Notes under the pieces: model-generated | What the model was told of the DNA's origin: nothing | The model's input: only the letters and a program-made list of their open reading frames with translations | The model's database searches: none | Shown here: positions 10,901 to 19,900 of the stretch, piece by piece | How positions within the stretch are numbered: position 1 is the stretch's first letter | Layout of the letters: every line of letters begins with the position of its first letter | Made by a program: the position numbers and the translations under genes | Assembly (NCBI RefSeq): GCF_964204645.1 | Contig: NC_134030.1 | Span: forward strand, 12,690,947-12,754,946 | DNA: 64,000 nucleotides | Direction of reading: 5' to 3' | Source: Tubulanus polymorphus | Taxonomy: Eukaryota > Nemertea > Palaeonemertea > Tubulaniformes > Tubulanidae

Positions 10901-13900
10901 CAAGAATTGGAGTAGGCATCATGCAGAAAGGAAATCCAAGATGGATGGCAACCCTGGTGGCCATACTTGAACTCAATTTTCAATAAGGGGTAGACATTTC
11001 ACCTACCGAAATTCTTACACCTAGTAAAATACATACTTACACCATGAAAATGCATCAAGAATTGCATGCCGTGTTGTGTTAGAAATTGAAGATGGCTGAC
11101 CTGGCGGCCATATTTGAAAGCCGATGACCTCCATATACTAAAGACATGGACAGCTTACCTACTCCGATTCTCACACCAAATTTTGTGGAAATACATCAAG
11201 AATTGTGGGCTGCATCATGCATAAAGAAATTCAAGATGGCCACCCGAATGGCAGCCATATTCGATTGACAATAACATTTTTTTACAATAGGGGTGGACAT
11301 CACGCCAGTCCCAATCTTCAAACTAATTTTCAAAAAGATTCATCGCAAATTACAGGCAAATTACTGTGTCGAATTCAATTCAATTCCAGAGGGCCTAACA
11401 AGACTCCTATGCAATAGGAGTCATGTTTGAAGCGGCGCACCTGCAGCGAACGCTCAAGCAAGGTCAGTCACGTAGGTCAACGATAACACAAAACAGACCA
11501 CAGTTTTCCCGGTTAAGAGCATCTCTCCACATAAATTAGAAGGACTATAATGGACCATTCGTTGACACAAACCTTTATTAAACTTCGTATGGATACAATC
11601 AAGATAATTCCACCCTATAATTCCACTATTCAACGATCAACGTGCAGCTTAAACATGGCGTCAAGTCTGACTTGGACCAGCACAAGGAACACAGATTGGG
11701 GTCCTCCCAGGCCCTAAAAAGGTGAATTCATCCCTCGCCACCTCGATGCTGCCCTCTAGGGAGAAGCATCAATCGAACAAAATACAAATACAAAATTTGA
11801 TACATACTTCTTGACATACCTTGGCACGTAGCCAAGGAGTATTATGGGATAGTCAACAATACAATAACTACGTGTATCGTACAACTACCACGATGAAAGC
11901 AAGAGTGAAAGATCCTCAAATGTTGGGACTCACCATTAGAGAGTGCAAGATTTCCATTTCTTCCATAATCCCAAAACTAGATCCAGCGATGCATCCGATG
12001 CTTTCATAGCCGAACACCAGAGAGAAAAGATGACAGATTTCTGCTTTGGATTGCGTAGTGCTCTCAGGAGGGTCGTATAGAAAAATCATTGCCAATCATT
12101 GTAAATTCAGATATCATTGGCAAAAAACCAAAGGAAAGGGTATTTGAAGGAAATATCAAGACTATGATATACAGCCTGATGATATTCAACAGAATCATAA
12201 TTTCCAAGTGCAATTTCTAGCACTTGTCTGTAAGGAATGCACTATTCATAAGCTTAGGCAACACAACTTATCTTCAAAATTTATGCGGATATTCGAAACA
12301 TGCTCAGTGACAGTAAGTCGCATACCGGTAATCTATTGATCCATTGTTAAAAGTTAACACACAGATATCAACAAATAATGAAAATTAATGAAATTTACCC
12401 ATAAGCAATCAGGGATTCCTGTATGTAGTGTATATTACTCATCAAAAAATTTATTTCAAGGAAAAATACTCACCTATTATGGTATCAAATAGCTGATTAA
12501 ATAGCAGTTTGTGTTGTTATGTAGAAATTGTCCAGGTTTTGGGAATGCAATGGGCTACCAAAATCGTGACCTTTTGTCCCCAAAATTTCATCCCAACTAC
12601 GCCTACCCTCAGTTCTGTCATGCTAATACCCCAAATACTCGAGAATTTCAAATTAGATGTAACATGGATGTCCATTTTTTCTGAGGTAATGGGTTAGAAT
12701 CCAAATTTTTATGTAGCAGATGAGTATTCTAGGGCAGATTTTGGCAACGTGAGAATTAGTAGCCAGCGTAGATGCAGGCGGATAGAGGGCTAGTAGGTAA
12801 ATTGAGTCTCTGTATTGGAATTCATTCAAGATGTTGTATGATGAGTGATGGCTTTGATTTATGCCTTTTGCTTTCATGAAAATGTGATAGGTGAGAAAAA
12901 TTACCTAACAAGATAGAAATTCTAAAAATGGGCTTGCTGACATGGGTGTACTGAAAGCTTGATGGTTTTGTATTTCTGAAGTAGAATTAATCGAACTGAT
13001 TACTTTTTAAAGAGCTAAGAGATCGGTGTTGTCTACATAATAGGGGTAATGGGCTTTCAGGCCAAAGGTCGAACGGTCGAGCTCATTAAAAAACAAAACA
13101 TTAAAAGTAATTAAAAACTATAATATATTTTCATAACCGTGTGCATTTTATATTAAAACTAAATATTTATTCTAAGACATCAATAATTTAAAAAGCATAT
13201 TGTATTAAATCAATTGGTCGCTCATAAAAAATGAAAAACATGAAAATAACAATAATTTCTACTTGAATTACTCGCGAAACTCATAAAAAATGAAAAATAA
13301 TTCTCGCATGCTCGAATTTATTTTTCATTTTTACTCGTTAGAAAAAAGTGTGAGTAAAGTGTGAGTGAAATAATTCATAAATCATTGAATATTTATATTT
13401 ATATGCGTTGGATTCATTTTAATAAAAGTTTTGTTATTAAAATGAAGACAGAAGAAGAACCCAACTTTAAAATCGAAATCAATGAAACCAATAAATCATT
13501 TTCACAGTTTTACATTAAAAATTATATTTCAGCAACAAATTTAGTGTCCGCAAGACATTATAAAATCGATAATATTACTATGATTAATCAAATATTATCA
13601 AATGAAACATATTTAATTATTGAACTAGTAGATACTTTTGATAATGGCGTTAAAAATCCTAAATTGTTAAATAAAGTTTTTAATTTTAAAGGAACTTTAG
13701 ATGAAAACATAATTAATATTCTTAAAACTCCTTTCAATGAAAGAAATGATGATATAATACTTTCAAAAGATTACAATGATTTGATTGACTTAAGAATTGA
13801 AAGAAGACAATTATATTATTTCAATTTTGATAATAAACAAATTATCTATAATGAAAATTCATCAAATATTGGAATTCAATGTGAATTAGATAATGAAAAA

Positions 13901-16900: not shown

Positions 16901-19900
16901 TGTCAAACAATTTATCATTTCAACTGTCAAAGAATTTATCATTTTAACTGTCAAACAATTTATCATTTCAACTGTCAAACAATTTATCATTTTAACTGTC
17001 AAACAATTTAACATTTCAACAGTCAAACAATTTATCATTTCAACTGTCAAACAATTTATCATTTCAACTGTCAAACAATTTATCATTTCAACTGTCAAAC
17101 AATTTAACATTTCAACAGTCAAACAATTTATCATTTCAACTGTCAAACAATTTATCATTTCAACTGTCAAACAATTTATCATTTCAACAGTCAAACAATT
17201 TATCATTTCAACTGTTAAACAATTTATCATTTCAACTGTCAAACAATTTATCATTTCAACTGTCAAACAATTTAACATTTCAACTGTCAAACAATTTATC
17301 ATTTCAACTGTCAAACAATTTATCATTTCAAACAATTTATCATTTCAACTGTCAAACAATTTATCATTTCAACTGTCAAACAATTTATCATTTCAACTGT
17401 CAAACAATTTATCATTTCAACTGTCAAACAATTTATCATTTTAACAGTCTATTAGATATTTAAATCTTTTAACTCAATTCAATGATTATAATGTAGAATT
17501 GTTACTCTTTACACCAGTTTTTATGTTTAATTGTTTCATAATGCTTTGATTTATGTGATTTTAAATATTTACCTCCGCAATAACAATGCACTTTTTCATT
17601 AGGATTGAATTTTCTAAATTCATCATCTAATTTACATTGAACTGCAATATCTTTAAATGATTTTTCATTATCTAATTCACATTGAATTCCAATATTTGAT
17701 GAATTTTCATTATAGATAATTTGTTTATTATCAAAATTGAAATAATATAATTGTCTTCTTTCAATTCTTAAGTCAATCAAATCATTGTAATCTTTTGAAA
17801 GTATTATATCATCATTTCTTTCATTGAAAGGAGTTTTAAGAATATTAATTATGTTTTCACCTAAAGTTCCTTTAAAGTTAAAAACTGTATTGAACAATTT
17901 AGGATTTTTAACGCCATTATCAAAAGTATCTACTAGTTCAATAATTAAATATGTTTCATTTGATAATATTTGATTAATCATAGTAATATTATCGATTTTA
18001 TAATGTCTTGCGGACACTAAATTTGTTGCTGAAATATAATTTTTAATGTAAAACTGTGAAAATGATTTATTGGTTTCATTGATTTCGATTTTAAAGTTGG
18101 GTTCTTCTTCTGTCTTCATTTTAATAACAAAACTTTTATTAAAATGAATCCAACGCATATAAATATAAATATTCAATGATTTATGAATTATTTCACTCAC
18201 ACTTTACTCACACTTTTTTCTAGCGAGTAAAAATGAAAAATAAATTCGAGCATGCGAGAATTATTTTTCATTTTTTATGAGTTTCGCGAGTAATTCAAGT
18301 AGAAATTATTGTTATTTTCATGTTTTTCATTTTTTATGAGCGACCAATTGATTTAATACAATATGCTTTTTAAATTATTGATATCTTAGAATAAATATTT
18401 AGTTTTAATATAAAATGCACACGGTTATGAATATATATATTATAGTTATATATTACTTATATATTATAGTTTTTAATTACTTTTAATGTTTTGTTTTTTA
18501 ATGAGCTCGACCGTTCGACCTTTGGCCTCAAAGCCCATTACCCCTATTACTATCATACACCCGGGGACTGGGAATCAGAATGGTTTTATTGTAGACGTGG
18601 ACCAAGTAAGTGCTAGCTTTTAGATGGTCGTTATTTGAATATGGCGGTGTCTTTTCGGAATCTATCATAGATAATTGCTAGATTACTTATGAAGACTGTG
18701 CTGAAATAATTTGGCTGTAGAAAAATTTACAGCTGAAAGAAAAAAATATGACTAACGTGAGTGACTTCAGGTGAAGAAAAGCGAACATGAAAATTGATAG
18801 GAGCACGATTTTTCTTATAAAAACATAAAGACATAAAGCAAAAATAAGTTGCATTTCCTTCAAATGACAATCCACTACGATCATCAGATAATGTTTAATG
18901 CCACCATAAACTATCGCCCCCTGGCCCTCCAAAGAGACAGGGAACCAGTCAAACCAGCCAATTCAATTCAGAATTTATTTTACAAAAAAGCAGTTTTAAG
19001 TTTTAGCATAGGTTTTAGATAAACTGAAAGATAGATAGAGCAGATAGATAAACTGAAAACGTATAAATGTTCCTACGAAGATTTTTTCAAATGGCCGCTA
19101 ATGCAAGCACCCAATGAAAGTAAAAGAAAATTAAAAGAATTTCTAAAAACGTGAAAGTGTTTTATTGTTAAATTTTAATTGTGTCAATAAAGAATGAATT
19201 GAATTGTCATCAGCACTATGCAGCCCATGAATACAAATTTCAAGACTGATCACGCACGCTCAACCAAGGTTGGCGTGAGCTGCGTGATAGAACACGTAAG
19301 CTACAACTTTTTAATTCATTGTTGTAACAAAATATGCTTAGGTATCAATATAATGTCGAAAAACTTTTTCCCACCTACGAATGGAACTAATGACACCAAG
19401 ATGGCCGCCAATTGCGTCATAATTGGCTGATCAAAAATACTTGTCTCAGGTATAAAACATCCTTTTCCAAAGAATACCCATCAGCAATTGCAATGAGAAA
19501 TGGCAAACCAGTAGGAAGCTACAGGACTCAGAATTCGAGCCAAAATTGACATTTTTGGGCATTTAAAAAGTCCTAGGACGACCATCTTGAGTCCGATCGA
19601 CCCAATTTTTGTTATGCTGATGGGCCCTGGGGGGTTCAATATATACGAAAGATCAAGGTAATTGATCAAGGCGTCTTCAAAATTTCCCTCAATAAGTTCA
19701 AAAATGTGTCAAAAGTGCTGATTTTGGCAAACAACAATGGCTGCCAGTCGGCCATCTTGGTTCTGACAGGGCCAGTTTTTGGGCTGAAGATGTTTCTAGG
19801 GTAGATACATGTATAAACCAAATATCAAGACATTACCTTGAAGCGTCTTCAAAACTTCCCAAAATAACTGGATTCCGTCTACGGACGGACGGACGGACGA

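What the first reader, a model, noticed from the sequence alone, without database searches (positions are those of the whole stretch)
13036..18551. Palindromic 5.5-kb satellite of a Polinton
Seen: a head-to-head palindrome with arms of about 2.06 and 2.27 kb whose termini match the 19.4-kb Polinton. It carries three small genes and none of the core Polinton genes. Known: non-autonomous Polintons are described mostly as internally deleted copies. Inference: this is a satellite that borrows replication, capsid and integrase from the large element, with new genes and a fully palindromic form that could replicate as a snap-back molecule. This is the strongest candidate here for an undescribed system.
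Basis: partly seen in the sequence, partly recalled or inferred. Interest (0 to 1): 0.87.

Follow-up and report, generated by a model that had tools for sequence, protein, structure and literature searches.

The report
Palindromic gene-carrying satellite of Polintons
This is one copy of a numerous family of short, largely mirror-image mobile elements that appear to hitch-hike on large virus-like transposons (Polintons) in the same genome while carrying three conserved genes of their own, a kind of satellite for which we found no description.

Summary
The palindrome is real and is not a single odd copy. In the same unnamed 268-Mb genome gene 1 gives 162 matches (150 of 692 candidates scored). 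Among the 150 listed, 29 inward-facing pairs lie within 10 kb and no other orientation occurs. Of 18 copies with both outer tips in view, 16 have perfect 6-bp target duplications; the window copy is one of the two without. Tips match the window's Polinton, whose integrase has at least 113 copies of 95-100% identity. A Polinton-size unit with one satellite end, one ordinary end and its own 6-bp duplication suggests that the ends are interchangeable; its middle was not read. The three genes are under purifying selection (pN/pS 0.36, 0.18, 0.26; noncoding control 1.5). The two arms of a copy resemble each other far more than arms of different copies, in sequence and repeat number. Best reading: a Polinton-dependent, self-complementary satellite whose arms are corrected against each other, perhaps by snap-back of a displaced strand. 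Mobilisation by Polinton machinery is well supported though indirect; snap-back replication and packaging are inferred.

The parts
13038..13084 (+). left tip (lacks the terminal AG)
18505..18551 (-). right tip, ...CCCCTATTACT
13220..13333 (+). terminal segment shared with the Polinton (about 87%)
18228..18341 (-). the same segment in the right arm
13442..14059 (+). gene 1, left arm, with an in-frame TGA
17502..18119 (-). gene 1, right arm, open (205 aa from the second ATG; 218 aa if begun at 18158)
14112..14700 (+). 24-bp tandem array, left arm (approximate limits)
16680..17449 (-). 24-bp tandem array, right arm (approximate limits)
14813..15031 (+). gene 2, left arm (72 aa)
16345..16563 (-). 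gene 2, right arm (72 aa)
16004..16306 (-). gene 3 (100 aa, weak C2H2-finger match); only its first codons remain in the left arm (15070-15096)
15109..15234 (.). fold centre: 44-nt perfect inverted repeat around a 38-nt loop
42339..61722 (.). Polinton in the same window with integrase, PolB and A32-like ATPase and 6-bp duplication GTGGTG

Best explanation
A Polinton-dependent mobile satellite, mostly built as a mirror image; the 18 two-ended copies span 2.5-7.3 kb. A full arm reads tip, gene 1, 24-bp array, gene 2, gene 3, noncoding DNA, fold centre. Shown: copies integrate with 6-bp duplications at Polinton-type tips; one Polinton-size unit with a matching duplication has a satellite end at one side and an ordinary Polinton end at the other; the three genes are conserved by selection; the two arms of a copy are kept alike. 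Inferred: the Polinton integrase inserts it and the Polinton protein-primed polymerase replicates it from the tips; the displaced strand folds into a full-length hairpin whose paired ends recreate an origin, and mismatches between arms are corrected in that hairpin; the genes are expressed in the Polinton programme (gene 1 from a promoter like that of the Polinton TIR gene, gene 2 from a T-run/TAAATAAATG context also seen at four Polinton sites). Packaging in Polinton particles is possible but untested.
For: Copy number and inward pairing. Palindromes through the centre: C5:16903522-16909017 at 98.7% over its whole length, C6:16819407-16825342 at 99.6-99.9%, C6:14507897-14512432 at 99.9% over the part held. 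Duplications: 16 of 18 two-ended copies; in two of them an uninterrupted homologue has the six bases once, with one mismatch each. Shared tips. Helper: at least 113 integrase copies at 95-100%, 100 of them without in-frame stop. Chimera at C6:15622364-15640398: ordinary ZnF end, tip-gene 1-array end, AGCCTG on both sides. Arms: gene 1 differs by a median of 0.15% within 10 copies and 2.8% between copies; 17 of 22 arms have their own partner as nearest; array length equal in 8 of 14 copies against 0.57 on permutation. Selection. Promoters.
Against: Two of 18 copies, the window's among them, have no duplication. Not every copy is a full palindrome: C6:15528105-15531987 has gene 1 in one arm and arms of 91.7% over 793 nt, and C7:9709192-9711674 has a whole gene 1 on one side only. 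Of the 150 listed gene 1 matches 56 carry in-frame stops and 92 have no listed partner, though only 150 of 692 candidates were scored. One chimera junction was found among 40 scored of 819 candidates, and 11.4 kb of its middle were not read. Arm likeness could come from gene conversion after insertion. The promoter patterns were drawn from the sequences compared, so their chance figures flatter them. No RNA, extrachromosomal DNA or particle data.
Confidence: 0.7

Rival explanations
1. A foldback-type DNA transposon mobilised by some other transposase; the tip likeness to Polintons is convergence or capture, and arms are kept alike by gene conversion in the chromosome.
For: Long inverted repeats with internal tandem arrays are the foldback layout; gene conversion between arms is known for chromosomal palindromes (recalled).
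Against: 6-bp duplications as in the window's Polinton, shared tip, terminal segment and first-gene promoter, and a chimera with both kinds of end and a matching duplication.
Confidence: 0.1
2. A copy-back defective derivative of a Polinton end, in the manner of symmetric defective adenovirus genomes: a by-product whose genes are those of some Polinton's end.
For: Gene 1 sits where the Polinton TIR gene sits, with a like promoter; one Polinton end carries gene 1 and the array; centres of five copies hold the last 50 bp of the ATPase gene.
Against: All three genes are under purifying selection across copies; the chimera has gene 1 at one end only, as expected if a Polinton took it from a satellite; genes 2 and 3 were not met in a Polinton, though only a few Polinton stretches were read.
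Confidence: 0.17
3. Assembly or library artefact (fold-back reads).
For: Such artefacts make palindromes (recalled).
Against: The palindromes stop at the tips, with different flanks and 6-bp duplications in 16 of 18 copies; contigs C2 and C14 hold the same copy with the same arm differences.
Confidence: 0.03

Closest known systems
Polinton/Maverick elements (6-bp duplications and (AGT)2-type end motifs of vertebrate Mavericks: passages of PMC8097293)
   Same: tip sequence, 6-bp duplication, terminal segment, promoter contexts
   Different: no PolB, integrase, ATPase or capsid gene seen; about a quarter of the length; most of the element is inverted repeat
Symmetric defective adenovirus genomes (SYREC type; recalled; none of the 10 papers listed of 14 is on it, nor any of the 15 listed by its title)
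   Same: two copies of one viral end in mirror image, helper-dependent, hairpin intermediate proposed
   Different: this one is integrated, numerous, and carries genes under selection
Foldback and Galileo elements of Drosophila (abstract starts in the listing)
   Same: very long, internally repetitive inverted repeats, structural variation between copies
   Different: 6-bp duplications, Polinton tips, protein genes within both arms
Transpovirons and virophages (abstract starts in the listing)
   Same: small DNA dependent on a larger DNA virus, with genes of its own
   Different: no capsid gene or helicase recognised by Pfam; the presumed helper is an integrated Polinton; palindromic

Membership tests
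Polinton (autonomous) | PolB, RVE integrase, packaging ATPase, capsid genes | tested here: not met
   ORF list and Pfam scan of the satellite; no significant match to 18 Polinton proteins
Non-autonomous Polinton | Polinton-type tips | tested here: met
Non-autonomous Polinton | 6-bp target duplication | tested here: met
   16 of 18 two-ended copies, not the window copy
Non-autonomous Polinton | interior is a deleted remnant of a Polinton | tested here: not met
   compared with the window's Polinton only: tip, terminal segment and promoter match, plus 50 bp of ATPase in five copies and 106 bp of PolB in one
Non-autonomous Polinton | moved by the Polinton integrase | not testable with these tools
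   indirect support from the chimera
Foldback element | long inverted repeats with tandem arrays | tested here: met
Foldback element | longer duplications (recalled: 7-9 bp) | tested here: not met
   6-bp duplications
Foldback element | Mutator or P type transposase (recalled) | not tested
   not sought in the genome
Satellite virus | helper-dependent replication and packaging | not testable with these tools
   sequence only
Virophage / transpoviron | capsid genes, or helicase-bearing linear episome | tested here: not met
   no such gene recognised in the satellite

The most novel reading that the evidence does not exclude
A distinct class of helper-dependent satellite: a self-complementary linear DNA that replicates as a full-length snap-back hairpin with the Polinton's protein-primed polymerase, is packaged in Polinton particles, encodes conserved proteins in duplicate (one set per arm), and exchanges ends with its helper.
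Probability: 0.4. Interest if true: 0.9.

Novelty: new variant of a known kind. Interest (0 to 1): 0.77.

Why it matters
Polintons are thought to be integrated viruses, yet their particles had not been observed according to the abstract of PMC8097293 (listing). A gene-carrying satellite that evolves with them would be indirect evidence of a virus-like replication pool. The arms look like a natural record of copying from one arm to the other, and the many copies make it possible to test how protein-primed elements keep long inverted repeats alike. It would add a palindromic, gene-bearing class to helper-dependent mobile DNA.

Tried and rejected
Rejected: single odd copy; assembly artefact (flanks, duplications); a Polinton with gene 1 at both ends at C5:11848079/11867206 (the three 5-kb pieces read show no recognisable Polinton gene between them, so I take these as two elements); genes 1 and 2 inside a Polinton at C8:2482304 (a shortened satellite about 600 bp from a Polinton); a Polinton family with gene 1 ends (one junction among 40 scored of 819 candidates; the other end of that element has the ordinary ZnF gene).

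Led nowhere: protein relatives of gene 1 (102 candidates, none significant; IMG/VR: none); Pfam and PHROGs gave weak matches only; single-sequence folds of gene 1 and gene 3 were of no use (mean pLDDT 35.5 and 47.3), so no fold search was made; no PDB match for the 415-aa Polinton protein. One search listed PolB relatives (best 73%); three were fetched and not used. The third homologue search and the tenth paper search were not used. The host was not identified.

Literature: (listings with starts of abstracts; one search found no paper with its phrases) and passages of PMC12220804, PMC6431247, PMC8097293 and PMC4028283. Nothing that I saw describes a palindromic or gene-carrying Polinton satellite. 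The library holds open-licence papers only.

Left out before counts: in the duplication count, pairs with one outer tip not found (2 of the 10 pairs: C6:14995867 and C3:21382956) and one-ended loci; C14 counted as the allele of C2:17704504. In the array count, C14 and arrays cut by a locus end (C61 among them). The 517 between-copy pairs include the C2/C14 alleles, and the 29 inward pairs include C14. In one search, one arm per copy, matches under 85% of gene length dropped, stop codons skipped (2, 3 and 1 copies with a stop for genes 1, 2, 3); the copies are mostly those most like the window's, so the sample leans to well-kept genes.

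Full report
Observation. The inverted arms are present at 98-99% over 1111 and 985 nt, far beyond chance. The element runs 13038-18551. It holds gene 1, a 24-bp array and gene 2 in both arms, and gene 3 in the right arm only. Its centre is a perfect 44-nt inverted repeat at 15109-15234. Three other copies (L044, L046, L069) turn around at the same sequence; L063, L066 and L051 share another centre, and L058 has a third. The window copy is thus a full palindrome with a deletion in its left arm.

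The family. The window lies in a 268-Mb genome of 77 contigs. Gene 1 gives 162 matches with 150 of 692 candidates scored, gene 3 150 with 150 of 374 scored, gene 2 150 with 150 of 340 scored; these are lower bounds. Of the 150 listed gene 1 places, 94 have no in-frame stop. There are 29 inward-facing pairs within 10 kb and none in any other orientation; strand shuffling gives a mean of 7.3 inward pairs and at most 15. Individual copies are palindromic through their centre: C5:16903522-16909017 at 98.7% over the whole length, C6:16819407-16825342 at 99.6-99.9%; C5:17389059-17395137 is 100% identical over the outer 2559 bp of each arm. Others are less complete: C6:15528105-15531987 has arms of 91.7% over 793 nt and one gene 1.

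Integration. The true tip is AGTAATAGGG. Of 18 copies with both outer tips in view, 16 have a perfect 6-bp duplication. In one search, 8 of 10 have one: TTCAAC, ACCGGT, TACTAG, AACAAC, CCTACT, CCTATG, GATAAG and ATCATA (C7:9709192-9711674). In one search, 8 of 8 have one: ATCGAC, CATGAC, GATAAT, AATATG, TATATG, AAGATA, GACATC, TACTTA. The two without are the window copy and C6:16819407. Two satellites sit inside other Polintons (an ATPase gene and a PolB region); the uninterrupted sequence in the window's Polinton has the six bases once, with one mismatch in each case. The window's own Polinton has GTGGTG on both sides. Vertebrate Mavericks also have 6-bp duplications (passages of PMC8097293).

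Link with Polintons. The window's Polinton has an RVE integrase (with a weak chromodomain match), a PolB and an A32-like ATPase; its capsid genes were not identified. At least 113 integrase copies of 95-100% identity are present, 100 of them without in-frame stop (2080 candidates, 113 scored). Satellite and Polinton share the tip and a terminal segment and the promoter of the first gene, TTTTAATAAAA....TATTAAAATG (9 matches against 0.03 expected, counting both arms, both strands and up to 3 mismatches). Gene 2 and four Polinton sites share a T-run followed by TAAATAAATG (7 matches, two of them overlapping, against 0.21 expected); three of the four precede listed ORFs, one being the 415-aa protein. 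Both patterns were drawn from the sequences compared, so these figures are not independent tests.

The chimera. At C6:15622364-15640398 one end is an ordinary Polinton end with the ZnF gene (L096). The other is a satellite-type end, tip-gene 1-array, joined directly to the HNH gene region and followed by two further Polinton genes, integrase and ATPase (L032, L094). Both outer flanks read AGCCTG. The 11.4 kb between L096 and L094 were not read. I take it as a recombinant that moved as a unit, with a satellite end serving where a Polinton end normally does. One such junction was found among 40 scored of 819 candidates. In addition, the last 50 bp of the ATPase gene, ending at its stop codon, lie in the centre of five satellite copies (C5:15714111, C12:8187401, C4:4611772, C10:7886206, C5:17391848), in three of them mirrored on both sides. 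Satellites and Polintons therefore exchange sequence.

Arms. In gene 1 the two arms of a copy differ by 0-1.1% (10 distinct copies, median 0.15%), while arms of different copies differ by a median of 2.8% (517 pairs, C2/C14 alleles included). Of 22 arms, 17 have their own partner as nearest; the others are the four arms of the C2/C14 alleles and the window's right arm. The number of 24-bp repeats is the same in both arms in 8 of 14 copies, within one unit in 3, and differs by two, seven and eight units in the rest (the window copy by eight). Array lengths vary from about 200 to over 1400 bp between copies; permutation gives 0.57 equal pairs on average, at most 5. Arms are thus copied or corrected from each other over much of their length. 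Correction in a snap-back hairpin before insertion explains this simply; conversion after insertion is not excluded.

Genes. Across one arm per copy, pN/pS is 0.36 for gene 1 (25 copies), 0.18 for gene 2 (22) and 0.26 for gene 3 (25); in a noncoding stretch near the centre, read as if coding, it is 1.5 (16 copies). Third codon positions hold 49, 65 and 55% of the differences in genes 1, 2 and 3 and 19% in the control. The proteins are therefore useful to the element or its pool. Gene 1 ends in a CxC..H finger-like motif (my reading), gene 2 looks like a one-pass membrane protein (my reading), gene 3 has a weak C2H2 match. No relatives were found for gene 1; genes 2 and 3 were searched outside this genome only in Pfam and PHROGs.

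Mechanism proposed. Protein-primed synthesis from one tip displaces a strand that can pair with itself along its length. The paired tips form a new origin, copying runs round the small loop to give a linear palindrome, and the Polinton integrase inserts it. Steps shown: tips, duplications, palindromes, arm likeness, genes under selection. Well supported: interchange of ends. Inferred: polymerase, hairpin, integrase, packaging. The adenovirus parallels are recalled, not read here.

Novelty. The searches listed in Tried and rejected showed no palindromic or gene-bearing Polinton satellite. I rate it a new variant of a known kind (non-autonomous, helper-dependent elements), with a fair chance that it deserves a class of its own.

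Noticed in passing
42339-42608 and 61454-61722: Each Polinton end is itself a tip-to-tip palindrome of about 0.27 kb with inner junction CTCTTAAAATAT; many but not all of the other Polinton and satellite ends seen show the same (0.2-0.41 kb).
   Followed up: partly
59794-60361 and 60969-61532: The right Polinton end carries a tandem duplication of about 1.18 kb with an extra inner tip near 60279 and a second ZnF gene.
   Followed up: no
15200-15512: Noncoding DNA near the satellite centre differs by only about 2% between 16 copies, less than synonymous sites of the genes (7.5-22%), which may mean a constrained cis element.
   Followed up: no
48139-48188: The last 50 bp of the Polinton ATPase gene occur, ending at the stop codon, in the centres of five satellite copies.
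   Followed up: partly
14122-14712 and 16664-17326: The 24-bp arrays keep an open frame repeating 8 residues (MINCLTVE); probably incidental.
   Followed up: no
genome places C1:18204524/18209677, C2:13519099/13524092, C4:15510153/15514716 and others: A second gene 1 group (about 79% over residues 7-178, frame of about 227 aa) also forms inward pairs.
   Followed up: no
41738-42338 and 61729-64000: The Polinton sits in a non-LTR retrotransposon-like ORF that continues on the other side (my reading of the frame).
   Followed up: no
23687-24904 and 37644-38861: Two near-identical copies of another small inverted-repeat element (402-nt arms, 339-nt spacer) lie in the window.
   Followed up: no
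L055, C8:8708890-8709881: A Polinton interior fragment (window 53941-53094) abuts a satellite centre, possibly another recombinant.
   Followed up: partly
L048, C2:15026266-15026370: 106 bp of the PolB gene lie between the array and a gene 1 remnant of a satellite copy.
   Followed up: no
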